From the NCBI GenBank assembly GCA_008534395.1, contig SHMQ01000009.1, positions 22,387-86,386 of the forward strand: a DNA stretch of 64,000 nucleotides. Reading direction: 5' to 3'. Made by a program: the position numbers and the translations under genes. Of the stretch, positions 1,553-58,575 are shown piece after piece (within the stretch, counting starts at the first letter, position 1; every line of letters begins with the position of its first letter). Source of the DNA: Candidatus Acidulodesulfobacterium acidiphilum (lineage in GTDB: Bacteria > SZUA-79 > Acidulodesulfobacterales > Acidulodesulfobacteraceae). A model generated the notes under the pieces. It was not told where the DNA came from. It did no database searches and saw only the letters and a list, made by a program, of their open reading frames with translations.

Positions 1553-1945
1553 TTAATTAACGTTTAAGGTTTCGCCGAACGAAGATTCCACTATTAATTC
1601 TTTAGCCTCCGGCCACAAGCCTTCTATATTATAATAATTTCTCAAGTCGTCGTGGATTAAATGAACCATAATACCGCCGTAATCGATGACTATCCATCTT
1701 GCGCCCGGCGTAGAAATTCCTTCCTGTCCAAGAGGTTTTTGTTTGAAAGAAGACAGCAGGTTATCGGCTATCGTGTTAAGGTGTCTGTCCGAAGAACCGC
1801 TTGCCACGAATATAAAATCGGTAATGCTTGAAATTTTTCTAACGTCTAAAACTATTATATCACGGGCTTTTTTTTCCAAAAGAAAATTTATTACGGCCCT
1901 TACGTCTTTATTTGTTCTTTTTAGCGGTTTTCTGTTTTGATTCAT
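1553..1945 (-). CDS. rsfS: Ribosomal silencing factor RsfS
   Basis: 130-residue Iojap/RsfS family protein, which binds ribosomal protein uL14 and blocks subunit joining when nutrients are short. The family core is visible: DIIVLDVRKISSITDFIFVA near residues 34-53, SGSSDRH, and the end of the domain with GARWIVIDYGGIMVHLI and WPEAKE. Full length for the family. It follows nadD, its usual partner, and its start lies inside the nadD 3' end, a 38-nt overlap, so the two are probably translationally coupled. No later in-frame Met precedes the conserved core, which supports the overlapping start. Confidence 0.93.
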   Translation of the reverse strand: MNQNRKPLKRTNKDVRAVINFLLEKKARDIIVLDVRKISSITDFIFVASGSSDRHLNTIADNLLSSFKQKPLGQEGISTPGARWIVIDYGGIMVHLIHDDLRNYYNIEGLWPEAKELIVESSFGETLNVN

Positions 1946-2585: not shown

Positions 2586-2624
2586 AATTTAAATTTTTTC
2601 GCCTTTACTTAAACTGACTTAACC

Positions 2625-3935
2625 TTAAGTTCTTTTCTGATAATTCCCGAATACTACGAATTTAGTGGTAGTAAGTTCTTTTGCCCCCATAGGTCCGTAT
2701 GCGTGAATCTTAGAAGTAGATATGCCTATTTCCGCGCCCAGCCCAAGCTCGAAACCGTCGTTAAATCTGGTGGAAGCGTTTACAAGTACGCAGGATGAAT
2801 TTACTTTTTTTATGAATTCAAGCGCTCTCGTATAGTTTTCCGTCATTATGGATTCGGTATGGTTGGAACCGTGAAGCCTTATGTGTTTTATGGCTTCGCC
2901 GATATTTTTAACGGTTTTAACCGCCAGCGTAAGATTGAGGTATTCCGCATCCCAGTCCGCATCGGCGGCCGGAATTATAAAATTATACCTGCTTTTAAAA
3001 ATATTCATTATCTCGCCGTCAACTCTTGTTTCAACCTCATTCCTTTTAAGTTCGTCAAGCATTGCAGGCATAAAATCGTTCATAATATCGGAATGGACTA
3101 AAAGCGTTTCTAAGGCGTTGCAAACCGAAGGCCTCTGAACTTTTGCGTTAATTATAACGTCTATCGTTTTTTTTATATCGGCGTATTTATCGACGTATAT
3201 ATGGCAGACTCCCTTGTCGTGTTTTATAACCGGAATTTTAGAATTTTCGGTTACGAAAGAAATAAGCCCTTCGCCGCCCCGCGGTATTATAAGGTCTATA
3301 TATTTTCTGAGCGATATCATTTCGGTTATAGCAGATCTGTCGATATAAGGGATTATGGACACGGTTTCCGGGGGAAGACCATTAATCCTGAGGCTTTCAG
3401 AAACTATCGAAGCAAGCATTTTATTGGAATTTATAGCTTCCGAACCTCCCCTTAATATTACCGCGTTGCCGGACAAAAGGCACAAAATAGAGGCATCTAT
3501 GGTAACGTTAGGTCTCGATTCGTAAATTATTCCTATTACGCCGAGCGGTATTCTCATCCTGCCGACCATTAGCCCATTAGGCCTTACCGCCATATTTTCT
3601 ATTTCGCCTACCGGATCTTTAATCTTCATTACGTCGTCGATAGAATTAAGCATCGAAGAAAATACTTTGCCGCTAATAAAGAGCCTGTCTATCATCGGTT
3701 TGCTTAATCCCGCCGCCTTTGCGCTTTCTACGTCCTTCTCGTTTTCGGCTTCTATTGCTTTCCTGTCTTTTATCAAAAGATCTTTTAGCGTGGATAAGAC
3801 GCTAAGTTTCACGGCGGAACCGGCTTCCGCTATTTTGCCGGAGGCATCGCGCGCCTTTTTGGCGATTTCTTCGATAGAAACGGTTTTATTATTATTTTTA
3901 TTTGTATCTATATTAATTCTATCATTATCTGTCAT
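2625..3935 (-). CDS. proA: Gamma-glutamyl phosphate reductase
   Basis: Second enzyme of proline synthesis: reduces glutamyl-5-phosphate with NADPH to glutamate-5-semialdehyde. Aldehyde-dehydrogenase fold, 436 residues versus about 417 in E. coli. Recognisable blocks: GVIGIIYESRPNVTIDA, the GGSEAINSN turn, the catalytic cysteine in QRPSVCNALETLLVH, and the C-terminal AEIGISTSKIHAYGPMG. The excess is an N-terminal N/K/D-rich stretch (residues 1-20) that could be a mis-chosen start, although an SD-like AGGAG lies just upstream of this ATG. It follows proB by 11 nt, so the two form one unit. Confidence 0.95.
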   Translation of the reverse strand: MTDNDRINIDTNKNNNKTVSIEEIAKKARDASGKIAEAGSAVKLSVLSTLKDLLIKDRKAIEAENEKDVESAKAAGLSKPMIDRLFISGKVFSSMLNSIDDVMKIKDPVGEIENMAVRPNGLMVGRMRIPLGVIGIIYESRPNVTIDASILCLLSGNAVILRGGSEAINSNKMLASIVSESLRINGLPPETVSIIPYIDRSAITEMISLRKYIDLIIPRGGEGLISFVTENSKIPVIKHDKGVCHIYVDKYADIKKTIDVIINAKVQRPSVCNALETLLVHSDIMNDFMPAMLDELKRNEVETRVDGEIMNIFKSRYNFIIPAADADWDAEYLNLTLAVKTVKNIGEAIKHIRLHGSNHTESIMTENYTRALEFIKKVNSSCVLVNASTRFNDGFELGLGAEIGISTSKIHAYGPMGAKELTTTKFVVFGNYQKRT

Positions 3936-3946
3936 ATTTACTCCTT

Positions 3947-5137
3947 TTATATATTTGCGACCATCTTGTCCTTATGCACGACGAGGGAAGAAATGTTGTC
4001 TTTTCCGAATTTAGCTTCTATCTCTTCAGAGCTTAACCCTTTTATTTTTTTAATATCGTCCGAATCTAAATTGGATATGCCTTTAGACAAAACCGTTCCT
4101 TTTTCGTCCAATACGTAAACTCCGTCCCCTTTTTTAAAATCGCCTTTTATTTTTATTATTCCGCCGGCAAGAAGGCTTTTGTTTTGATGCGCAATAGCTT
4201 CCACTGCCCCTTTATCTACGATTATTTCTCCGGCTTTTTCCATTCCAAATAAAAGCCAGTGCTTTTTTTTGTTAATTTTATTGCCGCGCGAAGAAACTAC
4301 CAGCGTTCCGCACAATCTGCCTTTTGCTAAAGAATCCAAGCTTTTTTTATCTTTGCCGGAAGCTATAACGGTGTCTATACCCGTGCTTGCGGCGATAAAA
4401 GACGCATAAAGCTTAGACTTCATACCTCCCGTTCCATGAGCGCTTTTAGACCCGTCTTTAAAATTTTTTATATAATTTTCTATGTCGCTTATAACTTTAA
4501 CGGGTTTTGCGTCCGAATAAACGGCTGGATTTTTATCGAAAACCCCTTTTACATTCGAAAGAACTATAAACAGGTCGGCGCAAACTAAGTTCAAAACAAG
4601 CGACGACAAATAGTCATTGTCGGAAAACTTTATCTCCTCGTAAGAAACGGTATCGTTTTCGTTTATTATAGGAATCACTCCGTTGCCGAGCAGTTCATTT
4701 ATAGTATTTCGTGCATTAGTAAACCTTTTTCTGACGGAAACGTCCTCTTTGGTTAAAAGAATCTGCGCCGTTTTAAGTCCATATTTTTTAAAAAACGAAT
4801 CGTAATTTTTCATTAAAACCGGCTGACCGCATGCGGCAAAAGCCTGTTTTTGGGGAATGGAAAAACTGCCGGTTACCGGTTTTATGTCAAGCAAATCTTT
4901 TCCGGCGGCTATGGCACCCGAAGAAACAAGTATGACTTCTTTTTTCTGCAATATAAGCGAATGAACGAAAGCGCAAATTCTTTTAAAAGAATGAGGCGAC
5001 AGTTTTCCTTCTTCGTCCAAAAGAACCTGAGTGCCTATTTTGATAACTATTCTTCTTTTAGAATCGAGATATTTTTTAAAATTATCTTGGATGCCTTTAA
5101 TTCCTTTAGTTTCGGTAGGTTCGTTATTTTTTTTCAC
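3947..5137 (-). CDS. proB: Glutamate 5-kinase with PUA domain
   Basis: First enzyme of proline synthesis, phosphorylating glutamate with ATP; usually feedback-inhibited by proline. Amino-acid-kinase domain at about residues 28-285 (RIVIKIGTQVL, LVSSGAIAAG, IPIINENDTV, GTGGMKSKLYAS), then a PUA domain at about 300-385, as in E. coli-type ProB. About 25 polar residues precede the kinase core, so the true start may be a few codons downstream. 74 bp separate it from obgE. Confidence 0.95.
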   Translation of the reverse strand: MKKNNEPTETKGIKGIQDNFKKYLDSKRRIVIKIGTQVLLDEEGKLSPHSFKRICAFVHSLILQKKEVILVSSGAIAAGKDLLDIKPVTGSFSIPQKQAFAACGQPVLMKNYDSFFKKYGLKTAQILLTKEDVSVRKRFTNARNTINELLGNGVIPIINENDTVSYEEIKFSDNDYLSSLVLNLVCADLFIVLSNVKGVFDKNPAVYSDAKPVKVISDIENYIKNFKDGSKSAHGTGGMKSKLYASFIAASTGIDTVIASGKDKKSLDSLAKGRLCGTLVVSSRGNKINKKKHWLLFGMEKAGEIIVDKGAVEAIAHQNKSLLAGGIIKIKGDFKKGDGVYVLDEKGTVLSKGISNLDSDDIKKIKGLSSEEIEAKFGKDNISSLVVHKDKMVANI

Positions 5138-5211
5138 TTATATATCTAATTGCAATTGCTTATTTAATTTATTATAAGATAACAATATGATAATTTTATA
5201 ATATCTCATAA

Positions 5212-6243
5212 TTATACCGCAATATTTTTTTTATTTAAAATTAAATTTAATTCGTTTTTAAGTTCCTCTATTCCCGCGCCGTAAGCCGCCGATATAAAAT
5301 ACACCGGAATATTTTGTTCGGAAAAAAACTTGGTTGTTTCTTTAATAATTTTATTTAATGTCCTTTTGTCCGTTATCAGGTCTATCTTATTTACAGCCGC
5401 TATCCGTTCTTTTTTGAGAATATTTTCGTCGTATTCGGTTATTTCTTTAACTACCGCTTCATATGAAGCCTTAATTTCTTTAAACGTTCCTATTTCGATA
5501 AGATAAAGCAGTATATTGGACCTTTCTATATGGCTTAAAAACTTAAGCCCGAGACCTGCGCCTTCGGAGGCGCCTTCTATTATACCCGGAATATCTACTA
5601 TAGTCAGCGTTTTAGCAGACTCTTCAGGATTATCTCCGGCATAAACGCCAAGGTTAGGGGTTTTTGTCGTAAAAGGATACGGCGCTATTTTTGCATGCGA
5701 ACCGGTAAGTTTAGATATAAGGGTGGACTTGCCGGCATTTGGAAAGCCGACTAAGCCTATGTCGCCCAAACTTTTAAGAACGAGGCGGACTTTTCTGGTT
5801 ACGCCCGGTATGCCCGGCTGGGCAAAACGGGGTCTTCTCTGCGTTGACGACTTAAAGAAGGTATTGCCTTTTCCGCCGATACCGCCCCTGAGCAGAACCG
5901 TTTCTTCGCCGTCTTTAATAAGGTCGGCCATTACTTCGCCTGAATCGAAATCTACGACCGTAGTGCCGACCGGCACTGTTATCAAGATATCATCCCCGTC
6001 TCTGCCTTTTTTGTTATTCCCCTGACCGTTTCCGCCCTTTTCGGCAATATATCTCGGTTTATACCTGAAATCCAATAGGCTTGTTATATTATGAGAAGCC
6101 TTAAATATAACGTCGCCGCCTTTTCCTCCGTCGCCGCCGTCAGGTCCGCCTTTAGGGATAAATTTCTCCCTCCTAAAGCTTACTGCGCCCCTGCCGCCGT
6201 TTCCTGAAGCAATCGTTATTATAGCGTTATCGACGAATTTCAT
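5212..6243 (-). CDS. obgE: GTPase ObgE
   Basis: Essential ribosome-associated GTPase acting in 50S assembly and stress signalling. Residues 1-158 form the glycine-rich Obg fold (GNGGRGAVSFRREKFIPKGG, GGDGGKGGDV), followed by the G domain with G1 GFPNAGKST near residue 168, switch TTKTPNLGV, G3 DIPGIIEGAS and G4 NKID. 343 residues, without the extra OCT domain of Gram-positive homologues. It keeps the usual rplU-rpmA-obgE order but is 453 bp from rpmA, an unusually wide gap. Confidence 0.96.
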   Translation of the reverse strand: MKFVDNAIITIASGNGGRGAVSFRREKFIPKGGPDGGDGGKGGDVIFKASHNITSLLDFRYKPRYIAEKGGNGQGNNKKGRDGDDILITVPVGTTVVDFDSGEVMADLIKDGEETVLLRGGIGGKGNTFFKSSTQRRPRFAQPGIPGVTRKVRLVLKSLGDIGLVGFPNAGKSTLISKLTGSHAKIAPYPFTTKTPNLGVYAGDNPEESAKTLTIVDIPGIIEGASEGAGLGLKFLSHIERSNILLYLIEIGTFKEIKASYEAVVKEITEYDENILKKERIAAVNKIDLITDKRTLNKIIKETTKFFSEQNIPVYFISAAYGAGIEELKNELNLILNKKNIAV

Positions 6244-6696
6244 TATAAAATTTTTTTATGCCGTTATTAATGGCAATTTTTTAAATATTTAATTATTTTA
6301 TTTAATTATTGAATTATTGAAATTAGTTTCAGCGTTAATTTTGAGAATGATAATGATATAGATATAAATAATATATATAAATATAAATTTATTATAACGC
6401 ATTTATTGCTATATAAATCGCATATGGAATAGAGATAACAATAGCGCAATAAGAAAATGCCGAGAGAAACACTGCCGCCATATTTAATATATATTCGGGA
6501 TATTGGATTATTTTTTATACTTTATTCTTATTTGGAAAAATTCGGTTTATATATATGTATGGTTAATGATTAAAGAAAGGAATGTGAAAAGCCGATATCT
6601 GTATTACTGCGGAATATTTTAACGAAGTAAAGTTTCTTAAGTCAAATTTTATATATCGCTTATATATACTTATATATAAACAACTTAAACTTATAG
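6244..6696. other. 453-bp AT-rich gap between rpmA and obgE
   Basis: No convincing gene on either strand. The stretch is very AT-rich with runs of ATATATAA, and likely holds a separate promoter for obgE. The only motif-like item is GAGAATGATAATGATATA at 6343-6360, discussed as a possible Fur-type operator. The middle (about 6420-6480) is less AT-rich and could belong to a small RNA, but I recognise no family. Confidence 0.5.
6343..6360. promoter_or_regulatory. Possible Fur-type operator
   Basis: GAGAATGATAATGATATA matches three successive GATAAT hexamers, the classic Fur box description, at 15 of 18 positions. It lies about 100 bp upstream of obgE in a very AT-rich region, where such a match can arise by chance. 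No iron gene is adjacent. Confidence 0.15.
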
Positions 6697-6954
6697 TTAT
6701 TCCGCAGGTATAATACTGACGAACTTTCTGTTATTTTTTCCTATATGAAATTTTACGAAACCTTTTATTATAGAATAAAGCGTGTAGTCTTTGCCTTCTT
6801 TAACAAATTTTCCCGGATGAAAAGACGACCCTACCTGACGAACTATAATCTCGCCCGGTTTAACTAACTGGCCTCCGAATCTTTTTACTCCCCTTCTTTG
6901 TCCCTGACTGTCTCTGCCGTTTCTGGAACTTCCGCCTGCTTTTTTATGCGCCAT
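6697..6954 (-). CDS. rpmA: 50S ribosomal protein L27 (bL27)
   Basis: 85-residue large-subunit protein whose N-terminal tail reaches the peptidyl transferase centre. Begins [20 protein letters not shown], the universal L27 start, and contains [16 protein letters not shown]. No N-terminal cleavage extension of the Firmicutes type. SD AAGGTGAT lies about 5 nt before the ATG. It follows rplU by 51 bp. Confidence 0.98.
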
Positions 6955-7005
6955 AATATCACCTTTTACTTAAAAAATAAATAATATATAATATAAGTTT
7001 ATAAT

Positions 7006-7320
7006 TTATGCTATGCCCGTTATCTTGACTTCGGTAAAATTCTGCCTGTGTCCTCTTTTCTTTCTTTCGTCTTTACGGCGTTTCATTTTGAAAACTACTA
7101 TTTTTTTTGCCCTGCCGTTTCTTACGACCGTTCCCTTCACGCTTTTATCCTTCAAAACCTCTTTATCGGTAACCAATAAGTCGCCGTTTTTAATTGCTAT
7201 AGGCGTAAAAGTTATCTCTTCGCCTTTTTCTTTTCCTACCGTTTCTATTCTTAAGATGTCTCCCTGCGAAACGACGTATTGCTTTGAGCCGGCATTAATA
7301 ACGGCATATTCTTTACTCAT
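7006..7320 (-). CDS. rplU: 50S ribosomal protein L21 (bL21)
   Basis: 104-residue L21, which binds 23S rRNA. YAVINAGSKQYVVSQGD at the start and KMKRRKDERKKRGHRQNFTE at the end are the family signatures. SD AGAGGA precedes the ATG. First gene of the rplU-rpmA pair, 82 bp downstream of waaA; no L21 leader structure was recognised in that short space. Confidence 0.98.
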   Translation of the reverse strand: MSKEYAVINAGSKQYVVSQGDILRIETVGKEKGEEITFTPIAIKNGDLLVTDKEVLKDKSVKGTVVRNGRAKKIVVFKMKRRKDERKKRGHRQNFTEVKITGIA

Positions 7321-7402
7321 AACAAATCCTCTTTAGCTTAAAAATTTAAGGAAAATTAAACCACACATATAAACTTGAATTATTAATTTTAATAGGTTTT
7401 GA

Positions 7403-8845
7403 TTATTTTGTCAACGATTTTTTTGCCTTTTTTTTATCCTCGCTTTTTAACGACAGCAAATAGCCTTTATAATTCAGATACTCAAGGTTCCTAAGGGAAA
7501 CGCCTTTATTGCGGGCTATAAGGTTTAAACCGTTTTTTCCGGCAGAATCGGCAGATTTATCGTTAAACAGGTAATCGGCCAACGCGTTATATAATTTCAA
7601 GGGAGAATCAATCTGTCTTCCGGCGGAATTCTTTATAATCTCCTCCGCCGCTTCCGAAAAATTTTGAACGTATCTGCCAAAAATTACCGGCTTCCCAAAA
7701 ATTAAAGGTTCGAGAAGATTATGCCCGCCTGACGGAATCAAGCTTCCGCCTACGAAAGCGGCATCGCATATGCCGTAAACCATCAAAAGCTGTCCTATAA
7801 TATCTACTAAAATGACGACGACTTTGTTTTCGGACAAACCGCAACTATTATTATCTTTAATATTTTTAATATCTTTAGAGTCGTAATGAGAGGAATAAAT
7901 TGAAGAAAGCTTATAGAGTTCTATTTCGGGTAAGTAATTATTTAAAAGTTTGTAAACCTCGTCGAATCTTTCAGGATGACGCGGAGCGACAAAAAGAAAA
8001 ATTTTATTTTTATGGTTAAGCTTGTTTAATTTTATTACTGAATCGGCAATTAACTCTTCTTCCCTTTTATGAGTGCTTCCAGCCGCTATAATTTTTGCGT
8101 ATTCCGAATTATTATTTTTATATTCTATGAATTTTTTGAGTATCGCGGTTTTTTCGTTTATATCTCCTGCAATAAGGGATGCATCCATGTCGAATTTCAT
8201 ATTGCCGGTTTGGTGCATATTTTCTTCCTTAATTCCAAGAGACGCAAATCTTTTGCAATACATATCGGATATACATAAAACAGAATCTATCTTTTTAAAG
8301 ATATAACCAAAAAAGAATCTGAAACGGATATAATTTTTATAAGACTTTTCCGATATTCTTGCGTTTATTAACGCTATGGGAATATTTTTTTTATTAAGAA
8401 TATTAAATAAATTAGGCCATATTTCAGTTTCTACCGAAATAAACAAAGACGGTTTTATCAGTTTCAAAATACTGCTTACGGAAAAAAGAAAATCGTAAGG
8501 AAAATAAAACGTTAAAACGTTACCGTTGTTTTTATAAAGATTGTCCGCAAAATCGAAACCTGTTTTCGTGGTAGCGGAAAGGTATATTTTCTTGCCGTAT
8601 TCCGACTGCAATAAATCGATAAAATTTACCGCCGCCCTCATCTCCCCAAGCGAAACGGCGTGGATCCAGACTCCTTCCTGAAAAGCCTCTTCCTTTAAAG
8701 GCTTGAAAGCGGAAGGGAAAAATTTATATAAGTAGCCTTCGCTTCTTTTATTTTTAGCGAGATTAAAAAAAGTTAAAGCTATAAAAAAAAATGGAAATAA
8801 AAACAATAAAATAATATTATAAACTGTGAATAAAACTTTTTCCAT
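7403..8845 (-). CDS. waaA: Kdo transferase (lipid A core)
   Basis: Transfers one or more Kdo sugars from CMP-Kdo to the lipid IVA precursor at the inner membrane. GT30 family: a single N-terminal membrane helix (residues about 5-27), the GVWIHAVSLGEMRAAV motif near residue 58 with the catalytic glutamate, the CMP-binding region VAPRHPERFDEV, and the C-terminal GGHNLLEPLIFGKPVIFG. 480 residues versus 425 in E. coli; the surplus includes an N/D/K-rich insert near residue 325 and a lysine-rich tail. Last gene of the lpx operon, 15 nt after msbA. Confidence 0.95.
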   Translation of the reverse strand: MEKVLFTVYNIILLFLFPFFFIALTFFNLAKNKRSEGYLYKFFPSAFKPLKEEAFQEGVWIHAVSLGEMRAAVNFIDLLQSEYGKKIYLSATTKTGFDFADNLYKNNGNVLTFYFPYDFLFSVSSILKLIKPSLFISVETEIWPNLFNILNKKNIPIALINARISEKSYKNYIRFRFFFGYIFKKIDSVLCISDMYCKRFASLGIKEENMHQTGNMKFDMDASLIAGDINEKTAILKKFIEYKNNNSEYAKIIAAGSTHKREEELIADSVIKLNKLNHKNKIFLFVAPRHPERFDEVYKLLNNYLPEIELYKLSSIYSSHYDSKDIKNIKDNNSCGLSENKVVVILVDIIGQLLMVYGICDAAFVGGSLIPSGGHNLLEPLIFGKPVIFGRYVQNFSEAAEEIIKNSAGRQIDSPLKLYNALADYLFNDKSADSAGKNGLNLIARNKGVSLRNLEYLNYKGYLLSLKSEDKKKAKKSLTK

Positions 8846-18895: not shown

Positions 18896-18906
18896 CAAAT
18901 TGGAAA

Positions 18907-18928
18907 GCCAGAATTCAATTCCGGCACC
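18907..18928. repeat. Degenerate GAATTC palindrome (family B)
   Basis: GCCAGAATTCAATTCCGGCACC, an imperfect version of the family B palindrome, lying 11 bp from family A copy 1. The same adjacency of the two families is seen near 51.4 kb. Confidence 0.6.
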
Positions 18929-22531: not shown

Positions 22532-22631
22532 CGCGCAGAATTGAATTCTGGCTTTCCATTTTGATACAGTGCCAGAATTGAATTCTGGCTTTCCATTTTG
22601 TGACGGTGCCAGAATTGAATTCTGGCACCGT
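22532..22631. repeat. Family B tandem array, three 37-bp units
   Basis: Three palindromic units with CAGAATTG starting at 22536, 22573 and 22610, an exact 37-bp period. Core palindrome GCCAGAATTGAATTCTGGC; spacer GCTTTCCATTTTG. The last unit ends 5 bp from the prfB stop codon, so its hairpin would form at the 3' end of prfB mRNA and before lysS. Confidence 0.9.
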
Positions 22632-48830: not shown

Positions 48831-51263
48831 TTACCTTCTTAAAGTTATACCGAAACGGTTATTAAGTTCTTTAATCAAGCCGTCTCTTAATTCATTGACT
48901 TCATCCATAGTAAGCGTTCTATCGTCGGCAATAGCGTCGTATCTTATAAGAAAAGATATTTTGCCTTCATCTATCTGTTTGCCGGTATAAACATCTTCAA
49001 GCCTGACGTTTTTAATTAATGCCGAATATCCTTTAATGACTTTTTCTATAGAAGCATACTGAATGTTTTTATCGCATACTATAGAAATATCCTGTTCAAT
49101 TTCAGGATATCTGTTAGGCGGTATGAAAGTTTTTTTATTCGAGATATATTCTTTAATATGGTCTAAATCAAACTCGAATGCAAAAACCTTGCTTTCTATT
49201 TTAAATTCGTCTAATATTTCTTTCTTAATTTCGCCGAAAATTCCGACTTTAGCTTTGCCGGCGGTAATTTCCAAAGATGCATTTTCGTTATAAAAACTTG
49301 CATCCTGTGTTTTATCGAACGAAAATTTTTTTATTCCGGATTCTTTAAGTAAAAATTCGACGACGCCTTTTCCTGTATAAAATTCAGTATCGCGGCTCGA
49401 ACTCTTAATGCCGGTACAGAAGCATCCGCATAAAACGTTTTTTTCGTTAACCGGCATACCGTCGGTATTTTCTCCTATATAAGCTTTTCCTATTTCAAAA
49501 ATTTTAATATTTTTATATTTTCTGTAATTTTGCTGAACCGACCTTAAAATATCGGGTATAAGATTTATCCTGAAAAAAGCATAATCTGCGGAAATATAAT
49601 TTTTAAGCTCTAAAACCGAATTTCTGCCTATGGAAGAATTCGTAACCGATATATTTATTTCTTTTTCGCCGGTAAGAGACGGCGAAATTATCTCGGTAAA
49701 TCCGGCATATCTTAATAAATTTCTGTAAAGCCTGTATGTTTCGAAATTTGCGTTTTTTAACGGAGGAGCAAGTAAGCCCAAAGGCATAGACGACTTTATA
49801 TTATCGTAACCATATATTCTTAATACATCTTCGTATATATTTACGGTTTCGCCGATATCCATCCTGAAATAGGGCGGGGAAACTTTAAGAGCCTTATTTT
49901 CTTCAACAGAAGGTTCGACGCGATACCCCAAGTTAGACAAAACGGTTTGAGCTTTTTTATTTACTGCCGAATCACCAGAAAATTCCGATAAAACGCTAAG
50001 GTCTATTTCATAAATTTTAGAGGTTTTATCATCCTTTATATCGTAAGCATAGCATTTGATTTCGATATCGCCTTCATATTTGCGAAGAAGTTGCAGAAAA
50101 CGTTTAATAGCATATATGCTTAAAGCGGGGCTTATCCCTTTTTCGAAGCGCGTCGAGGCATCCGTCCTTAAAGAAAGCGTCCTTGAAGTCTTTCTTATTC
50201 TAGACATATTGAAATTAGCCGATTCTACGATAATATCTGCAGTGTCGTTGTCTATTTCGCTATTTGCGGAACCCATTATTCCTGCTATAGCGATAATTTT
50301 ATTTTTATCGGCTATAACTATATCTCCATCCGATAATTTTCTTTCTTTTCCGTCTAAAGTAACGGCGGTTTCTCCTTTTAACGCAAATCGCACGTTAATT
50401 GCGTTTCCGTCAAGTTTTGAAGCATCGAATGCATGCAGCGGCTGTGAAGTTTCCATCATTACGATATTAGTTAAATCGACTATATTATTAATCGGCCTTA
50501 TGCCGCTTTTCATAAGCTTATTTTTAATATGCAAATCCGATTCTTTTATTTTTAAACCAGATATTTTTACCGCTATATAAGACGGCGCTATTTCTTCTTC
50601 AGCTATATTAACGCTTAATTCATTTCTATCGGAAACATATTTTTCGCCGGCGTTTATATTAACGCCCTCGTATATTTCAGGTAAAAGTATCTTTTTATCT
50701 AATATTGCCGCTAACTCATACGCAAATCCCATAATTCCAAAAAGATCCGGTCTGTTTGGCTCAAGATCGAATTCTAAAACCGTATCGTCAAGTTCAAAAA
50801 TATCGAATGCAGACATACCTGTTTTTAAAAAAGGAAATTCTGCTATCGAATCTATATTTAACTGGAGTCCCAAATCTTTTTCAGAACAGAAAGCGGCTTC
50901 GGAAACCACGCCGAATATAGCCTTATCCCTAATTTTTAATCCGTGGTCGAATACGGTGCCTTTTGTAGCTATAAGAGGTTTGTCTCCAACTTTTACGTTT
51001 AGTCCCTCTTTGGTAAACACTATCCTTTTAACTCCTAAGGTTTCTCCTGCGTAAACTTCGGCTATGCCGAACTTATCGTTGGAAGGATGCGGCGCAATAC
51101 TTTTTATTTCACCGAGTACGATATTTTGAAACGACTTTTTTTGCGAATAATAAGGAAATATTTTTTCTACTTCCATAGTTCTGCCGTTTAAAAGAGAGGC
51201 TACTTTTTCGGGCTCCGTTTTAAAATAAACAAATTCTCTAAGCCAGTTCAAGCTTACTTTCAA
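48831..51263 (-). CDS. pheT: Phenylalanyl-tRNA synthetase beta subunit
   Basis: Beta chain of the alpha2-beta2 PheRS, holding the editing site. EMAP-like tRNA-binding domain (about 40-150), B3/B4 editing region (about 205-385; MKSGIRPINNIVDLTN), B5 domain (about 400-480) and C-terminal anticodon-binding FDX-ACB fold (IPPNRYPEIEQDISIV...). 810 residues. Normally follows pheS directly; here pheS is about 4 kb upstream, with three unrelated genes between. Confidence 0.96.
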   Translation of the reverse strand: MKVSLNWLREFVYFKTEPEKVASLLNGRTMEVEKIFPYYSQKKSFQNIVLGEIKSIAPHPSNDKFGIAEVYAGETLGVKRIVFTKEGLNVKVGDKPLIATKGTVFDHGLKIRDKAIFGVVSEAAFCSEKDLGLQLNIDSIAEFPFLKTGMSAFDIFELDDTVLEFDLEPNRPDLFGIMGFAYELAAILDKKILLPEIYEGVNINAGEKYVSDRNELSVNIAEEEIAPSYIAVKISGLKIKESDLHIKNKLMKSGIRPINNIVDLTNIVMMETSQPLHAFDASKLDGNAINVRFALKGETAVTLDGKERKLSDGDIVIADKNKIIAIAGIMGSANSEIDNDTADIIVESANFNMSRIRKTSRTLSLRTDASTRFEKGISPALSIYAIKRFLQLLRKYEGDIEIKCYAYDIKDDKTSKIYEIDLSVLSEFSGDSAVNKKAQTVLSNLGYRVEPSVEENKALKVSPPYFRMDIGETVNIYEDVLRIYGYDNIKSSMPLGLLAPPLKNANFETYRLYRNLLRYAGFTEIISPSLTGEKEINISVTNSSIGRNSVLELKNYISADYAFFRINLIPDILRSVQQNYRKYKNIKIFEIGKAYIGENTDGMPVNEKNVLCGCFCTGIKSSSRDTEFYTGKGVVEFLLKESGIKKFSFDKTQDASFYNENASLEITAGKAKVGIFGEIKKEILDEFKIESKVFAFEFDLDHIKEYISNKKTFIPPNRYPEIEQDISIVCDKNIQYASIEKVIKGYSALIKNVRLEDVYTGKQIDEGKISFLIRYDAIADDRTLTMDEVNELRDGLIKELNNRFGITLRR

Positions 51264-51376: not shown

Positions 51377-51471
51377 TTAGATATTTTATAGTCATTATAA
51401 CATATTCAAGAGATTTTTGCCGCTCTATTGCAGGATTAAAGTTTCTTTTATCTTTTCCGTTTTATTACGGA

Positions 51472-51610
51472 TACGGAATTGAATTCTGGCACTTCCAATT
51501 TGTGACGGTGCCAGAATTGAATTCTGGCACTTCCGATTTGTGACGGTGCCAGAATTGAATTCTGGCACTTCCGATTTGTGACGGGGACAGAATTGAATTC
51601 TGGCACCGTA
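51472..51610. repeat. Family B tandem array, four 38-bp units
   Basis: GAATTGAATTC cores begin at 51476, 51514, 51552 and 51590: exact 38-bp period. Inner units hold a perfect 11+1+11 palindrome with arm GTGCCAGAATT. Spacer is ACTTCCGATTTGTGACG. The last unit abuts the dprA stop codon. Units are near identical, as in recent tandem expansion. Confidence 0.92.
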
Positions 51611-51611
51611 T

Positions 51612-52604
51612 CTATATAATGTCAAACAGACCTGGCTGTGTCAGGCGGTCGTCTTCGGCAAACTTTTCCGCGTAAAGTTTATTATGGACGTCATGCATTT
51701 CTTCTAAAGACGCGCCTAAATCCGGAATAAAATCTCCACGTAACTTTACTCCAAAAACCCCGACTTGTCCGTAAAGGGATTTCAATCCTTCATTTTCGTA
51801 AGAATTCATTAAATTTAAGTTGTACTCCGGAATAAAAACCGGACGTTTTTGTTTAATAGAAAAACCGCAAGTTTTCATAGTTCCGCTTTTTATAGGCGAA
51901 GATAACGCAAAAGTTCCAAGCGAAGAACCGCTCTGCAGTCTGTCCCTTGCCACTAAATTTTTGGAAGATATAGGTTCGTGCGGCGAAAGTTCCGAAACCA
52001 GCGCTCCCCCATTTAATATTATTTCATTATACAAATCCCTATTCTCGGGGGGATATACCGGGGAAAGAAGTCCTGAACCAAGAAAGGCTATAGTATATCC
52101 GTTGTTCTTTAATACAGTCCTGTGAGCCGCCGAATCTATCCCTAATGCAAGTCCGCTTATTATAGCATAACCTGAAGAACATAGTTCCGAGGTTATATCC
52201 TCTGCAAGTTTAACCGCATATTCCGGCGGTTTTCTCTGCCCTACGACGGCGGCCGCTATTTTTAAGTCCTCTTTTAATGTCCCTTTATAATAAAGAATTA
52301 AAGGCTTATTTTTAATTTTGCGTAAATTTGCCGGATATAAAGAAGAATTAAAAGTTATTATTTTAACGCCGTTTTTAGAAGCCTCGTCAATTTCTTTTAT
52401 GGCATCGAAAAAAGCCGTCTTTATAACTCTTTGATTTATTAATATCTTAACGTAATCTATTTTTAAACCTGTTTTAATAAAATCGGACTTATCGGCGTTA
52501 AAAATTTCGCATGGACTGCCGAATGCATTAATTAAAAAAATTATATGCCTGTTCTGCAGGCCCTTTATTTTTTTAAGCGCTAAAGTGCATATAATATCGT
52601 CCAT
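51612..52604 (-). CDS. dprA: DprA/Smf-family protein, variant type
   Basis: DprA Rossmann-fold protein; the studied family loads RecA on incoming single-stranded DNA. N-terminal helix-hairpin-helix (residues 8-40, FGSPCEIF), YPANLRKIKNKPLILYYKG, then GQRKPPEYA and GLALGIDSAAH (151-161). The usual RNRIIAGLS motif is replaced by ARDRLQSGSS (219-228) followed by KSGTMKT, and the typical C-terminal winged helix is absent or unlike the family; the protein ends at 330 with QPGLFDII. Its ATG overlaps the stop of the phosphoribosyltransferase (TAATG), so the two are coupled. It could serve transformation, or a DprA-PRTase defence-type module. Confidence 0.85.
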   Translation of the reverse strand: MDDIICTLALKKIKGLQNRHIIFLINAFGSPCEIFNADKSDFIKTGLKIDYVKILINQRVIKTAFFDAIKEIDEASKNGVKIITFNSSLYPANLRKIKNKPLILYYKGTLKEDLKIAAAVVGQRKPPEYAVKLAEDITSELCSSGYAIISGLALGIDSAAHRTVLKNNGYTIAFLGSGLLSPVYPPENRDLYNEIILNGGALVSELSPHEPISSKNLVARDRLQSGSSLGTFALSSPIKSGTMKTCGFSIKQKRPVFIPEYNLNLMNSYENEGLKSLYGQVGVFGVKLRGDFIPDLGASLEEMHDVHNKLYAEKFAEDDRLTQPGLFDII

Positions 52605-53215
52605 TAAATATCCCCGCCCGCAAAATTTATAATATCTTCTTCCTTGGGCGTTTTACCGAGAAATATTCCTGTTACAGCGCTTGCCCCCTCTTTTAATAAT
52701 GCGTTTTTTATAATATTAAAAGTAGTTCCCGTAGTTATAATGTCGTCGAAAATTATTATTTTTTTTGATTTATAATTATACTTATACTCAAACGATATAT
52801 TATTTAAGTCCTTTTTTTTCAATTCTATATTATTCTCGATATGCCCTGGTTTGTGACCTTTAGTGCATACTAAAGCCTTTTCGTAAGTAGAAATAGTTCC
52901 CAGCGCCGAAAGATACATGCATACCTGAGAATTAGGATAAACGTCCAAATATGAATTGCTCGGCGGAACCGGAAGTATTAAATCGTAAAAATAAAAATAA
53001 TTATATATAATATTGTTCAATATTTTTATAAAAAAAGCTACGGCCTTATAATCGCCCTTTTTATATTTTAAAATTAAATCGGAATATTTTACGCTTGAAG
53101 GTAACCTGCGCTTGCCAAAGAGATATTTTTTATTTTCCGGAATATAATAATCTAAATAAAAATATTCTCCGTTGCCGCCTATTTTTATATTCATATTATT
53201 TTGAAGCATTATCAA
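52604..53215 (-). CDS. ComF-like phosphoribosyltransferase
   Basis: 203-residue type I phosphoribosyltransferase. The PRPP loop is IIIFDDIITTGTT at residues 153-165; an upstream strand LILPVPPSN (79-87) is the second active-site region. It lacks the N-terminal zinc finger of ComF. The reading frame opens at a TTG (53215); ATG codons at 53209 and 53194 are equally possible and none has a clear SD. Overlaps dprA by one base. Divergent from the helicase gene, 70 bp away. Substrate unknown. Confidence 0.8.
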   Translation of the reverse strand: MIMLQNNMNIKIGGNGEYFYLDYYIPENKKYLFGKRRLPSSVKYSDLILKYKKGDYKAVAFFIKILNNIIYNYFYFYDLILPVPPSNSYLDVYPNSQVCMYLSALGTISTYEKALVCTKGHKPGHIENNIELKKKDLNNISFEYKYNYKSKKIIIFDDIITTGTTFNIIKNALLKEGASAVTGIFLGKTPKEEDIINFAGGDI

Positions 53216-53285
53216 TATTATTATTATTAATAAACTTTGCCATTGATTTTATAAAATTAAATCGTTAATAAATCGACAATTTAAT
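53216..53285. promoter_or_regulatory. 70-bp divergent intergenic region
   Basis: Only non-coding DNA between the phosphoribosyltransferase (minus) and helicase (plus) genes, so it should hold promoters for both. AT-rich, with a TTATTATTATTA run at its left end. No clean -35/-10 pair and no SD could be picked for either gene, which suggests low or leaderless expression. Confidence 0.4.
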
Positions 53286-55328
53286 ATGATAAATCTTTAT
53301 CTTAAAAATTTCAATTTTAATATATCTAACTCTATAGGGATACTGCTTTCTTCCGACAATGAATGCAGCCATTTTATTAAAAAAATCGAAGATTTAAACG
53401 TAAAATGCAAATTTTTTACTTTTGAAGATTTAAAAAAAAATTTTAATATAGACGGCGCAATTGAATCCCCTTTAAGTTTTCCTTTTAAAAATATTAAAAA
53501 CGTTTTATCGGCACAAGCGGTTTTTTTAAGCGCTATAACATTGAATTCGCTTTCTGACGCCGTCTTATTGAACGCCGTCTGCGACTTTGCGCTAAATAAC
53601 GACATTATTTTAGGCATAACGACGGAAACGACTTTTAACGGCGCTAACGATTTAACAAGTTTATATGACAACATGCTAATCGAAAAAAATTATTACGAAA
53701 ATTTAATAATCGATATTTACAAATCGCGTTTAAAAATGCTTTTAAAAACAAGAATTTTAGCTTCGTCAAAACACGGCGGATACACGGAATCTATTGACTT
53801 GTTTATCAATAAAATGAAAACTATACGTTTTAATCCTAAAATTAATAATACAAATTTATTTTTTTTAAATTCTGAAAAATTCGCCGTGAGTATTAATATA
53901 ACGCCGCCGCACAAAAATATACAGGCGACCGGACAAGCGGCGGAATCTATTTCTCAAAATGAAATTAATCTAAATACAAATTTATTAGACATGCACTTTT
54001 ACCAAAAAGAGCTGTTCGATAAAATTAAAATATTTTTAAATACCGCAAAAAATTTTAAAGAAAAAACGGTTTTAAAAAGAATCGGAGGGGCTACCGAAAA
54101 AAGGACGCAAAATTTGGAACTAAGCAAAATTCAAAAAATATCGATAAAAGAAACAAATACGGCACTTCTTATAATAGCAGGCGCAGGAGCGGGTAAAACT
54201 AAAGTAATAGTCGATAAATTCTTATATTTATTAAATTTTTTTTCCGCAGATTCGATACTTGTTCTGACTTTTACCAATAACGCCGTAACCGAAATAAAAA
54301 ACAGGATAGCAAAAAAATTAAATATTAACGAATATGGCGCATTTATAAACAATAGGATTTTAAATATTTCAACTTACCACAGTTTTTTCTATTCGATAAT
54401 AAAAGAATTTTATAGCGAACTTGGATATCAATCTGCTCCTTCGGTTTCAGATGGAAAAATTGGAGAGTCCTCGTCGAATAATAAATGCACTAATGAATTA
54501 TCTATAACTTACGATGAAATTATTTTAAATATAGTAAAACTTTTTCAAAACGATTCCATAGTAAGCGAAATATCGTCAAGATTTAAATATATATTAGTCG
54601 ATGAATATCAGGATTTAGATTTTTTGAGCGATTATTTAATAAAAAAAATAGACGCGTGCAAGGGTAAAGTTATGTATGCCGGAGACGACGACCAGTCGAT
54701 ATATGGATTTAACGGAGGAGATTTATTTAATATTCTGTCGTTCGACCTGTTTTTCCCTTCAGGCAAGGTGTTCGTTTTTCAGAATAATTACAGGTCAAAC
54801 CGGACTATAGTAGAATTTTGCAATTCAATATTGAATAACATAAAATTCAGATATCCAAAAAAAATAATTGCAACAAAGAATATGATATATGACGGGGCAG
54901 TCGATATTATAGATTTTAAAAATAAAAGCGAAGAAGAAAAATTTATAGAAAAAAAAGCGGCGAATTATTTTAAAAGCGGAAAGAAAACTGCTGTTTTAGT
55001 AAGAACAAAAAAGGAAAAATCTAAATTTCTGGCTATTCCTAATTTAACCGATTTTTGCTCGGTATCGACCATACATGCAGGCAAAGGTTTGGAGTATGAC
55101 GTAGTATTTATATCCATTTTAAAAAAAGCTTATTTGAAAAAAGATAACAGACCGTCCGATTTTAAAATTCATCCTTTCTTAAATTTTTTTAAAACAGCTC
55201 ATACGTTTAAACTAACGGATATATTCATCGACGACGAGGTAAGGCTTTTTTACGTTGCCGCTTCAAGAGCTAAAGAAAAACTTTATATAACTTATTCGGG
55301 AGAAATTTCTGATTTTTTAAAACGTTAA
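53286..55328 (+). CDS. SF1 (UvrD/Rep-like) helicase with unusual N-terminal domain
   Basis: 680 residues. The helicase is in the C-terminal 400: Q-motif Gln283, Walker A IAGAGAGKT (297-305), Ia VLTFTNNAV, motif II ILVDEYQDLD, III AGDDDQSIYGFNGG, IV NNYRSNRTIVEF, V STIHAGKGLEYDVVFI, VI RLFYVAASRAKEKLYI. It is compact: the 1B/2B accessory domains of UvrD are much reduced. Residues 1-150 are a separate alpha/beta domain; AVFLSAITLNSLSDAVLL (79-96) with NNDIILGITTET loosely resembles the flavoprotein fold of SpoVFB/CoaC-like proteins. Residues 150-278 form a linker of unknown type. Convergent with pheS, sharing TTAA stops. Lysine- and asparagine-rich, like its neighbours. Not a plain UvrD, PcrA or RecB. 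Confidence 0.85.
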   Translation: MINLYLKNFNFNISNSIGILLSSDNECSHFIKKIEDLNVKCKFFTFEDLKKNFNIDGAIESPLSFPFKNIKNVLSAQAVFLSAITLNSLSDAVLLNAVCDFALNNDIILGITTETTFNGANDLTSLYDNMLIEKNYYENLIIDIYKSRLKMLLKTRILASSKHGGYTESIDLFINKMKTIRFNPKINNTNLFFLNSEKFAVSINITPPHKNIQATGQAAESISQNEINLNTNLLDMHFYQKELFDKIKIFLNTAKNFKEKTVLKRIGGATEKRTQNLELSKIQKISIKETNTALLIIAGAGAGKTKVIVDKFLYLLNFFSADSILVLTFTNNAVTEIKNRIAKKLNINEYGAFINNRILNISTYHSFFYSIIKEFYSELGYQSAPSVSDGKIGESSSNNKCTNELSITYDEIILNIVKLFQNDSIVSEISSRFKYILVDEYQDLDFLSDYLIKKIDACKGKVMYAGDDDQSIYGFNGGDLFNILSFDLFFPSGKVFVFQNNYRSNRTIVEFCNSILNNIKFRYPKKIIATKNMIYDGAVDIIDFKNKSEEEKFIEKKAANYFKSGKKTAVLVRTKKEKSKFLAIPNLTDFCSVSTIHAGKGLEYDVVFISILKKAYLKKDNRPSDFKIHPFLNFFKTAHTFKLTDIFIDDEVRLFYVAASRAKEKLYITYSGEISDFLKR

Positions 55329-56359
55329 AACTGGTTTAAGATATCGAGGCTGCCCTGATATAAAAGCCGCAAATCGTTGATATTGTATTTAAGCATAACT
55401 ATTCTGTCGAATCCCATTCCAAAGGCAAAACCTTTATATTCTTGCGGGTCTATGCCTGCATATTTAAAAACGTTGGGATGCACCATTCCGCATGGAATTA
55501 CTTCTATCCAGCCGGTATTTTTACAGACTCCGCATCCTCTTCCGCCGCAGAATACGCATTCTATATCAAGATCTAAACCCGGTTCAACAAAAGGATAAAA
55601 AGCAGGCCTGAAACGTGTTTTTCTTGCGCCGAGAAGGTGTTTTACTGTCTCTTCCAATATTCCTTTTAAATCCGAAAGTTTAACGTTTTTATCTACGAAA
55701 AGGCCTTCCATTTGATTAAACATAAAAAGGTGCGTCGCATCCACGGCTTCATATCTGTAACATCTGCCCGGCGCAATTATCCTTAAGGGCAGTTCTTTTT
55801 TTTCGAGGGTTCGAGCTTGAACGCTGGACGTGTGCGTTCTCGGCACCAAACCGTTCAGCAGATAAAAAGTATCCCATACGTCTCTTGCGGGATGATCCGC
55901 CGGAATATTTAACGCATCGAAATTATAATAAGTAGTTTCTATTTCAGGGCCTTCGACTATTTGGAAACCCATAGACGTAAAAAAATCGGCCGCTTCTTCC
56001 AGTACAGCAGTTATCGGGTGTTTATGAAATCTTTCTATCTGTTTTCCGGGTATTGTAAGGTCTATTTTATATTCGTCGAAAAATTTTTTATTTTCTCCTG
56101 AAAAAAGTTCTATTTTTTTTGTATTATAAATTGCTTCTATCTCGTTTTTGACTTCATTCGATTTTTTTCCTATAATTTTTTTTTCTTCTATAGAATATGA
56201 ACCGATATTATGTAAAATCTCCGTCAGCTTGCCTTTTTTTCCCATAAAAGCCTTAAAGATGCCGTCTAATTCATTTAAATCCTTGGCGGAATCCAAAGAT
56301 ATTTTTGCTTCTTCAAAGATTTTATTTATAGTATTTATAATTTCTATGTTTTTTTCCAT
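55325..56359 (-). CDS. pheS: Phenylalanyl-tRNA synthetase alpha subunit
   Basis: Catalytic chain of PheRS. N-terminal coiled coil (residues 1-90, KAFMGKKGKLTEIL), class II core with motif 2 RTHTSSVQARTL and CYRYEAVDATHLFMFNQMEG, and motif 3 GFAFGMGFDRIVMLKY. The CVFCGGRGCGVCKNTGWIEV segment is a normal PheS feature. 344 residues. Separated from pheT by dprA, a PRTase and a helicase gene. Confidence 0.97.
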   Translation of the reverse strand: MEKNIEIINTINKIFEEAKISLDSAKDLNELDGIFKAFMGKKGKLTEILHNIGSYSIEEKKIIGKKSNEVKNEIEAIYNTKKIELFSGENKKFFDEYKIDLTIPGKQIERFHKHPITAVLEEAADFFTSMGFQIVEGPEIETTYYNFDALNIPADHPARDVWDTFYLLNGLVPRTHTSSVQARTLEKKELPLRIIAPGRCYRYEAVDATHLFMFNQMEGLFVDKNVKLSDLKGILEETVKHLLGARKTRFRPAFYPFVEPGLDLDIECVFCGGRGCGVCKNTGWIEVIPCGMVHPNVFKYAGIDPQEYKGFAFGMGFDRIVMLKYNINDLRLLYQGSLDILNQF

Positions 56360-56403: not shown

Positions 56404-58575
56404 TTATCCCTCTACTTTATTCCTTCCGAAATCTTTTGCCTTATATAAATTATCGTCTGCAATTTTTAGCAGACTGCTTAACATTTCGTCCGGATCGTTA
56501 TTTTTTCCGGCTATTTCTATATTTTTATCGGATAGCAACTGTTTTATATCCGAAACTCCTACGGATATGGTAATATTCAAATTTAAATTTTCTTTCGGAG
56601 TATAAATTTTATTTTCTATATAAACCCTTAATTTTTCCATTAAATTCATAGCTTTTTCTTTACTTGTATCCGGTAAAACTACTACGAACTCATCCCCGCC
56701 GTATCTTGTTATTATGTCCTGTTTTCTGAGTAAAACGCTTTTTAAATCGTTGGTAAATTCGACCAGCATTGCGTCCCCTATATTGTGTCCGTAATTATCG
56801 TTTATATTTTTAAACTTATCGATGTCCAATATAGCGCAGGAAAGATTCGTCGAATTTCTTGCAGCCCTGACTATTTCTCTTTTTACGAACTCGTACATAA
56901 ATCTTCTGTTATGTATGCCAGTTAAAGAATCGGTAAGCGCAAGCTCCCTGTTCGTCTCTATTAATATCAGCTTAGCAAAAACCGGAGACGCTATGTTTAT
57001 TATCTCTTTTATCAAGTCGATAATTTCTTGGGTAAAGAAATGCTTATCTTCGGAATCTATAGAAATAGTGCCGGCAATTTCATCGCTTATTTTTAACGGA
57101 AAACACGTATAACTGCCGGCAGTACCTTTAAATTCGCAATTATCTACGGTATCGTTCAGATTATTATTTTTTCCATTTTTTAAAAGTTTGCAGTTCGACA
57201 GATAATCTTCGTATTCTATATTTGCGGTTTTCAGTATAATTTTATCCGCATTTTCGGAATTGTCCGTCTCCGGCGGCGAACCTTTTTTTCTGTCGTAAAT
57301 CAAAGATGTGACTGTTTTTTTATTAACGGTATCGAACATGTTGATATGAAGAGAATCAGGTAGTCCGCCGCCAGGTTTTTTTATTGAACAAAGACCTTCC
57401 GCAAAAGTTTTGACGGCATATTCAAGGGTAAAAACTATAGATAACTTATACGATAAATCGTTTAACAAGCTAAGCTTCTTTATTATAAAGTTGTTCTCCT
57501 TTTGTTTTTCAATTATGGTATTATTTAAAACAGTTATAGCTTTAGCAAATTCGTAAAATTCATTTTCCTTATTTTTATATTTTGCCTCAAGGCCTAATTC
57601 TTTAGGATTATTAGGATCTATACTTTCTATGTTTTTCAAAAGATCGTAGAAAGGTTTTGAAAATCTTTTGCTTATGAAAACAAAAATCAGTATAGTTAAA
57701 ATATATAACGCTATAAAAAAAATTATAGACGTATAAAGCTTAGAAAGATGCCTGAGCCATGCATATTGCTTTATGCCGACACCAAATATCCCTATAATTT
57801 TACCGCCGTAATTTTTTATAGGTACGTTATATATATAAAAAGGCGTGCCGTCCACGTTTATCGATGTATAAACGCTTATACCTTTTTTTAAAACCAAAAG
57901 CTGTTTTTTTGTTGCCATCTGCGACAAACCTTCATATTTATTATTTTTAACAAAAGAAATAGCAGACCTTTCGGAACCGTAATAAATACCGATATTTGAA
58001 GGTATATGTTTTTTTATTCGGATATTTTTTAAATAATCGCTGGTGACGTGTCTGTTTAGAATAATCAAATAACCGTTATTTTTATGCAGCAGACGATAAA
58101 TCACGGTAATATTTATGAGCCTGTCTGATTTATCTCTGGCGAAGCCCATAAATATGTAACGGTTTTTTGTAAGTATTATTCTTTTCAATTTGCCGTAATA
58201 TTGCCTTGATGCTTTAACTTTTTCGGAATATTTCTTGTATTTAAATTTTTTAATATAATCTATTTTACCGTTTTTTATTTTTACAAAGACTATACTGGAT
58301 ATTTTTTTAGAATCGGCTGTTTTTTGTATAAATCTGAAATTAAAATTATGAGCTACAATCTCGTTGGCTTTTTCAAGCATATAATTTTTTTCGCTTAAAA
58401 AGGCCATAGTTACGGACATCAAGTTCGATTTTAGCTCTTCTTTTAATGATTTCCGGCTGTATAAGGCAATATAGTGAATGGCTATGAATATTCCTACCGA
58501 AAAAATAATAATATTCGACAGGATAAAGAGGAAATAAATTTTAAATTTTATAGAATTAAGATTTATTTTCGGCAT
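56404..58575 (-). CDS. Membrane diguanylate cyclase (Cache-GAF-like-GGDEF)
   Basis: Predicted c-di-GMP synthase sensing an external signal. TM helix at residues 11-37, a periplasmic Cache-type sensor (about 45-270), second TM helix (about 275-300), a HAMP-like segment, a GAF-like region (about 385-545) and the GGDEF domain. The active site is RYGGDEF (GGDEF 626-630), with DIDKFKNINDNYGHNIGD upstream; an inhibitory RxxD site is present at R617-D620, so product feedback is likely. 723 residues. The ligand cannot be told. Its context between pheS and the ATP synthase genes gives no clue. Confidence 0.88.
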   Translation of the reverse strand: MPKINLNSIKFKIYFLFILSNIIIFSVGIFIAIHYIALYSRKSLKEELKSNLMSVTMAFLSEKNYMLEKANEIVAHNFNFRFIQKTADSKKISSIVFVKIKNGKIDYIKKFKYKKYSEKVKASRQYYGKLKRIILTKNRYIFMGFARDKSDRLINITVIYRLLHKNNGYLIILNRHVTSDYLKNIRIKKHIPSNIGIYYGSERSAISFVKNNKYEGLSQMATKKQLLVLKKGISVYTSINVDGTPFYIYNVPIKNYGGKIIGIFGVGIKQYAWLRHLSKLYTSIIFFIALYILTILIFVFISKRFSKPFYDLLKNIESIDPNNPKELGLEAKYKNKENEFYEFAKAITVLNNTIIEKQKENNFIIKKLSLLNDLSYKLSIVFTLEYAVKTFAEGLCSIKKPGGGLPDSLHINMFDTVNKKTVTSLIYDRKKGSPPETDNSENADKIILKTANIEYEDYLSNCKLLKNGKNNNLNDTVDNCEFKGTAGSYTCFPLKISDEIAGTISIDSEDKHFFTQEIIDLIKEIINIASPVFAKLILIETNRELALTDSLTGIHNRRFMYEFVKREIVRAARNSTNLSCAILDIDKFKNINDNYGHNIGDAMLVEFTNDLKSVLLRKQDIITRYGGDEFVVVLPDTSKEKAMNLMEKLRVYIENKIYTPKENLNLNITISVGVSDIKQLLSDKNIEIAGKNNDPDEMLSSLLKIADDNLYKAKDFGRNKVEG

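What the first reader, a model, noticed from the sequence alone, without database searches (positions are those of the whole stretch)
51612..55328. DprA variant + phosphoribosyltransferase + SF1 helicase island splitting pheT from pheS
Seen: pheS and pheT, usually adjacent, are kept on the same strand but about 4 kb apart; between them lie a DprA-family gene, a PRTase overlapping it by one base, and a divergent helicase sharing the 70-bp promoter region. Tandem palindromes and a family A hairpin border the pheT side. Known: DprA and ComF belong to competence, and (from memory, not verified) DprA-PRTase pairs have been proposed in comparative genomics as defence modules. Inferred: the three genes act together on foreign or single-stranded DNA, with the PRTase possibly making or modifying a nucleotide signal.
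Basis: partly seen in the sequence, partly recalled or inferred. Interest (0 to 1): 0.75.

Follow-up and report, generated by a model that had tools for sequence, protein, structure and literature searches.

The report
DprA–phosphoribosyltransferase–helicase locus splitting pheST
Between the two genes of an essential enzyme, a whole phylum of acid-mine bacteria keeps three DNA-handling genes whose DprA member is closest to plasmid and phage toxin-antitoxin proteins rather than DNA-uptake proteins, so a module usually seen on mobile elements appears to have become part of normal cell upkeep.

Summary
The trio is not a recent or mobile island. The window lies in Ca. Acidulodesulfobacterium AP4 (genome size identical to the published one). 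Wherever contigs allow, every genome of its phylum (Ca. Acidulodesulfobacteriota) has pheS–[helicase]–PRTase–dprA–pheT; one lineage lost the helicase. Competence is unlikely: ComEC is absent from all 30 genomes of the phylum, the only DprA lacks the winged helix, and the only ComF-like protein lacks the zinc finger. PADLOC's ShosA hit is unspecific, since canonical DprAs score higher. A tree, however, places this DprA with ShosA/RecQ/HAD-PRTase-partnered DprAs and apart from canonical DprA (100/99; 98/96 with the signature motif masked), sharing R[ND]R[IL]Q. The PRTase keeps its PRPP loop. The helicase is a UvrD-like SF1 enzyme whose N-terminus is predicted to fold like DnaC/DnaI/IstB/DnaA AAA+ domains but has no Walker A in 26 of 26 sequences; I found this combination only in this phylum. 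Purifying selection (dprA dN/dS about 0.1, like pheS/pheT) and phylum-wide retention favour a domesticated genome-maintenance module over a competence remnant or an active mobile defence system. That the three act together is inferred: a rate-covariation test gave no specific signal.

The parts
48831..51263 (-). pheT (PheRS beta)
   Evidence: TIGR00472 634.7 bits
51285..51379 (.). Hairpin with 20-nt arms in the dprA-pheT gap; local, not part of the module
   Evidence: the gap is about 21-36 bp in most of the genus
51455..51606 (.). Tandem palindromes (38-bp period), a genome-wide repeat; not part of the module
51612..52604 (-). DprA-like protein, 330 aa, toxin-antitoxin-type, without winged helix; the only PF02481 protein in the genome
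51933..51947 (-). Signature RDRLQ (canonical DprA: RNRII)
   Evidence: R220 and R222 invariant
52604..53215 (-). ComF/ShosT-like phosphoribosyltransferase, 203 aa, no zinc ribbon, no HAD domain
52721..52747 (-). PRPP loop DDIITTGTT
   Evidence: same signature as H. pylori ComFC DDIITTGTTL (PMC9005727)
53216..53285 (.). Divergent intergenic region between PRTase and helicase
53286..55328 (+). UvrD-like SF1 helicase with a phylum-specific N-terminal region
53286..53765 (+). N-terminal domain (aa 1-160): predicted DnaC/DnaI/IstB/DnaA-like AAA+ fold without Walker A
54177..54200 (+). Helicase Walker A AGAGAGKT (aa 298-305), intact
55325..56359 (-). pheS (PheRS alpha)
   Evidence: TIGR00468 310.1 bits

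Best explanation
A chromosomally fixed ('domesticated') member of the DprA-phosphoribosyltransferase superfamily (ShosTA / RqlHI-PsyrTA-like), working in genome maintenance rather than in DNA uptake. Shown: fixed position throughout the phylum, a TA-type DprA, an intact PRPP-binding loop, an intact SF1 helicase core, purifying selection, and absence of the uptake channel ComEC. Inferred: PRTase and DprA are made together (1-bp overlap) and bind each other. The DprA-like protein binds single-stranded DNA and holds the PRTase inactive or directs it. At ssDNA produced by replication stress or invading DNA, the PRTase uses PRPP to act on nucleotides or nucleic acid. The divergent helicase, possibly docked on the replication machinery through its ATPase-dead DnaC/DnaA-like domain, prepares or resolves the ssDNA. 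Placement in the pheST unit would keep the pair constitutively expressed.
For: Order pheS-hel-prt-dprA in all 25 fetched relatives plus the window, with pheT in 24 of the 25; DprA in 29 of 30 genomes of the phylum, the exception 65% complete. ComEC in 0 of 30 phylum genomes but in 30 of 31 outside ones. No zinc-ribbon ComF in the phylum. DprA tree 100/99 with TA-type proteins, 98/96 for the canonical clade with the motif masked and the domain trimmed; motif R[ND]R[IL]Q in 14 of 14 family and 11 of 11 TA-type proteins of that side, and in no canonical one where the region was found. dN/dS against three close relatives: dprA 0.09-0.11, prt 0.16-0.21, helicase 0.25-0.31, pheS/pheT 0.05-0.11. Published analogues: RqlH (helicase+PRTase) restrained by DprA-like RqlI (PMC4670107); ShosTA acts through purine pools and DNA damage (PMC12593503). 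An independent plasmid locus has PRTase, DprA and a UvrD-family helicase in a row (Tunicatimonas).
Against: No toxicity, binding or expression data. Rate covariation among the three genes is no stronger than with the neighbour rseP. One lineage (G018) keeps the pair without the helicase, so the helicase is dispensable. The attachment point of this DprA within or beside the TA clade is unresolved (AU p=0.427), and long branches are involved. The PRTase-ShosT relation is weak (94/88).
Confidence: 0.45

Rival explanations
1. An active anti-phage toxin-antitoxin system (ShosTA-like): the PRTase is a suicide effector, DprA the antitoxin/sensor, and the helicase a third component.
For: Closest DprA relatives in the tree are plasmid/phage TA pairs; PADLOC top hits are ShosA/ShosT; Rousset et al. 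showed that such a pair protects against T7 and lambda (PMC9122126).
Against: Fixed single locus with no loss or duplication of the pair seen in a whole phylum, unlike typical defence genes; dN/dS of dprA like pheS/pheT; the PADLOC ShosA score is lower than that of canonical DprAs; no HAD pyrophosphatase part; no phage or plasmid relatives of the PRTase or of the helicase N-terminus.
Confidence: 0.2
2. Functionally unrelated housekeeping genes that merely sit between pheS and pheT (above all the helicase relative to the pair).
For: Helicase divergent and lost in one lineage without loss of the pair; no specific rate covariation.
Against: prt and dprA are tightly spaced or overlapping, and DprA-PRTase pairing recurs on plasmids and phages.
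Confidence: 0.2
3. Remnant or alternative natural-transformation machinery (ComFC-DprA-helicase handling incoming ssDNA).
For: ComFC interacts with DprA and, in S. pneumoniae, with the DNA-dependent ATPase ComFA (PMC9005727); the same three functional parts are present here.
Against: No ComEC in 30 of 30 genomes; DprA outside the canonical clade and without the winged helix; no zinc finger, which H. pylori ComFC needs for efficient DNA internalisation.
Confidence: 0.1

Closest known systems
ShosTA (DprA + PRTase toxin-antitoxin/defence)
   Same: TA-type DprA fold and motif; adjacent PRTase with a PRPP loop; tight pair
   Different: Solved ShosT is a 432-447 aa protein and the P2-phage one is 424 aa; here a 203 aa PRTase only. 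The ShosTA loci seen here are on mobile elements; this one is fixed across a phylum. Extra SF1 helicase.
RqlHI / PsyrTA
   Same: Helicase + PRTase + DprA-like protein as functional set
   Different: RqlH is a RecQ-like helicase fused to the PRTase and RqlI is 400 aa with an HTH domain (PMC4670107); here a separate divergent SF1 UvrD-like helicase and a 330 aa DprA without winged helix.
ComFC-DprA(-ComFA) of natural transformation
   Same: PRPP loop DDIITTGTT, DprA partner, helicase-type third component
   Different: No ComEC, no zinc finger, non-canonical DprA, SF1 helicase rather than ComFA.
PcrA/UvrD/Rep SF1 helicases (also GajB, RTasHel)
   Same: Helicase motifs and core
   Different: N-terminal 262 aa with no PDB sequence match and no Pfam match in the window's copy; predicted inactive DnaC/DnaA-like AAA+ domain; the genome has at least two other UvrD-like genes.

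Membership tests
ShosTA | DprA protein of the TA-type clade | tested here: met
   (nested position inside the clade unresolved)
ShosTA | ShosT with pyrophosphatase (HAD) plus PRTase domains | tested here: not met
   203 aa, only a PRTase-type match; PADLOC 427-aa ShosT model matched by 4 of 19 members, best E 0.0012
ShosTA | Located on mobile elements / patchy distribution | tested here: not met
ShosTA | Toxicity of T neutralised by A | not testable with these tools
   needs expression in a laboratory strain
RqlHI/PsyrTA | RecQ-like helicase fused to PRTase | tested here: not met
   separate SF1 gene
RqlHI/PsyrTA | DprA-like partner gene | tested here: met
Competence DprA/ComFC | ComEC in the same genome | tested here: not met
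   0 of 30 phylum genomes, 30 of 31 outside, 10 of 14 controls
Competence DprA/ComFC | Canonical DprA clade with winged helix | tested here: not met
   below the TIGR00732 cut-off
Competence DprA/ComFC | ComFC zinc finger | tested here: not met
   no CxxC in the first 60 aa of 14 of 14; ComF model matched only from about position 37 on
Gabija/DRT helicase (GajB, RTasHel) | Partner GajA nuclease or reverse transcriptase next door | tested here: not met
   neighbours are PRTase, DprA, pheS, pheT; the hit reflects the shared UvrD core
DnaC/DnaI/IstB/DnaA AAA+ fold (helicase aa 1-160) | Initiator-clade AAA+ fold | tested here: met
   VIA-align Z 12.5 (5he8), 11.6 (8q3w), 11.3 (3ecc) over 133-146 residues, rmsd 3.0-3.6; Foldseek best E 9.7e-4; predicted model, pLDDT 84
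DnaC/DnaI/IstB/DnaA AAA+ fold (helicase aa 1-160) | Walker A for ATP binding | tested here: not met
   absent in 26 of 26

The most novel reading that the evidence does not exclude
A three-component system in which an ATPase-dead helicase-loader-like AAA+ domain fused to an SF1 helicase works with a DprA-PRTase pair at replication forks, wired into the pheST transcription unit: a former toxin-antitoxin module that became part of core genome maintenance of an entire phylum.
Probability: 0.25. Interest if true: 0.75.

Novelty: new variant of a known kind. Interest (0 to 1): 0.55.

Why it matters
[quoted passage not shown] A phylum that lacks the DNA-uptake channel and canonical DprA, yet keeps a TA-type DprA–PRTase pair under purifying selection in one fixed place, separates this module from both competence and mobility and makes its cellular role testable. 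The helicase adds a domain combination (initiator-type AAA+ without Walker A plus UvrD core) that I did not find elsewhere.

Tried and rejected
PADLOC labels at face value: rejected after a control, as canonical DprAs score 216-247 bits on the ShosA model against 203 here, and a canonical zinc-ribbon ComF scores 42.9 on ShosT against 61.5 here. DprA as replacement for a missing RecO: rejected, RecO is present in nearly all phylum genomes. Recent island with palindromes as borders: rejected. Rate covariation as proof of joint function: not specific. Mobile relatives of the PRTase or the helicase N-terminus in viral contigs, phages or plasmids: none found (PRTase; N-terminus); a genome-collection scan with the PRTase alignment found the phylum and one weak Bacteroidetes hit. 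Sequence searches of the helicase N-terminus: no PDB match, no Pfam match for the window protein, scattered weak Pfam hits for other members. Nested position of this DprA inside the TA clade: not resolved. Structure of a DprA–PRTase complex could not be predicted with the tools.

Full report
What is there. The window is part of a 2,093,156-base genome, exactly the published size of bin AP4 of Ca. Acidulodesulfobacterium (PMC6776010); the phylum is Ca. Acidulodesulfobacteriota, SZUA-79 (PMC11382960). Between pheS (55325-56359) and pheT (48831-51263), both on the minus strand, lie a PRTase (52604-53215, -), a DprA-family gene (51612-52604, -) that shares one base with it, and a divergent SF1 helicase (53286-55328, +) 70 bp away whose stop overlaps the pheS end by 4 bp.

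It is ancestral, not a mobile island. All 25 fetched relatives from five genera show dprA–prt–helicase–pheS in this order, 24 of them with pheT on the contig. In G018 pheT–dprA–prt–pheS are packed 28, 2 and 19 bp apart without the helicase, and a search of this 99%-complete genome found no orthologue. A rooted pheS+pheT tree puts G018 inside the family (91/84), so the helicase was probably lost there. DprA is found in 29 of the 30 held genomes of the phylum; the exception is 65% complete. Outside the phylum pheS and pheT are adjacent in 22 of 30 genomes, and none of 20 DprA loci examined had a match to this PRTase or helicase nearby.

It is unlikely to be competence machinery. ComEC (PF03772) is missing from all 30 phylum genomes and present in 30 of 31 genomes outside. 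The genome has a single DprA, which lacks the winged helix found in most of the outside DprAs scanned, and a single ComF-like protein without a zinc ribbon. RecO is present, so DprA does not simply replace it.

What the DprA is. PADLOC names it ShosA, but canonical DprAs score higher on the same model, so that label alone says nothing. A tree of 49 proteins separates the family plus 11 TA-type DprAs (ShosA of P2 and Pf phages, partners of HAD-PRTases and of RecQ-type helicases) from 21 canonical DprAs at 100/99. With long rows removed, the domain trimmed and the signature residues masked, the canonical clade still stands at 98/96. All family members and those 11 TA-type members carry R[ND]R[IL]Q where canonical ones carry RNR[ILV] followed by I, L or V. 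Three DprAs paired with small PRTases or ComF (Mana, Riah, Embleya) fall on the canonical side, and whether the family is nested in or sister to the TA group is not resolved.

What the PRTase is. It keeps the PRPP loop DDIITTGTT, and the alignment has 33 invariant columns. It has neither the ComFC zinc ribbon nor the HAD part of ShosT. A weak tree (94/88) groups it with some ShosT-type PRTases rather than ComF. No relatives were found on phages, plasmids or viral contigs.

What the helicase is. The core has the SF1 motifs (AGAGAGKT, DEYQD, GDDDQSIYGF, VAASRAKE) and is closest to PcrA/UvrD/Rep in the PDB; the genome has at least two further UvrD-like genes. The first 262 residues match nothing in the PDB by sequence, and the window's copy matches no Pfam family. 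The AlphaFold model (pLDDT 84) matches initiator-type AAA+ domains over residues 1-160: DnaI 5he8 Z 12.5, IstB 11.6, DnaC 11.3, DnaA 9.4 (Foldseek best E 9.7e-4). No sequence of 26 has Walker A there, so it is probably an ATPase-dead docking domain (inference).

Selection and linkage. All genes are under purifying selection: dN/dS against three close relatives is 0.09-0.11 for dprA, 0.16-0.21 for prt, 0.25-0.31 for the helicase and 0.05-0.11 for pheS/pheT. Rate covariation after removing the pheST signal is not greater among the three than with rseP, so joint function of the helicase with the pair is unproven. Independent support for the combination is one plasmid of Tunicatimonas with PRTase, DprA and a UvrD-family helicase-nuclease in a row; two other TA-type DprAs have a helicase gene close by.

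Mechanism. In RqlHI a helicase-linked PRTase is genotoxic and is restrained by a DprA-like partner that binds it (PMC4670107). ShosT is described as PRTase and pyrophosphatase that disturbs purine pools, with ShosA binding DNA and promoting repair (PMC12593503). By analogy, the most likely role here is an ssDNA-responsive genome-maintenance module derived from such a pair. Defence is possible but fits the phylum-wide fixation less well.

Novelty. Each part belongs to a known superfamily; the phylum-wide fixation in the pheST unit, the absence of ComEC, and the helicase architecture make it a new variant of a known kind.

Noticed in passing
window 18906-18926, 22570-22627, 51476-51606: Palindromic repeat TGCCAGAATTGAATTCTGGCA, often in tandem, about eleven sites in the genome, six of them on the window's contig; 0 expected by chance in the window.
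   Followed up: partly
L218 (Tunicatimonas pelagia plasmid) 1574-6696: PRTase, DprA and a UvrD-family helicase with a PD-(D/E)XK nuclease domain in one direction; an independent three-part arrangement.
   Followed up: partly
L183 (E. coli plasmid pLAO18) 3977-8792: TA-type DprA followed by a very large protein with HAD, DUF559 and DEAD-box helicase domains.
   Followed up: partly
L045 (G017) 5636-8057: pheT is matched over its length but the open frame covers only part of it; frameshift or assembly error.
   Followed up: no
window 56404-58575: GGDEF-type protein next to pheS, matched next to pheS only in some of the relatives.
   Followed up: no
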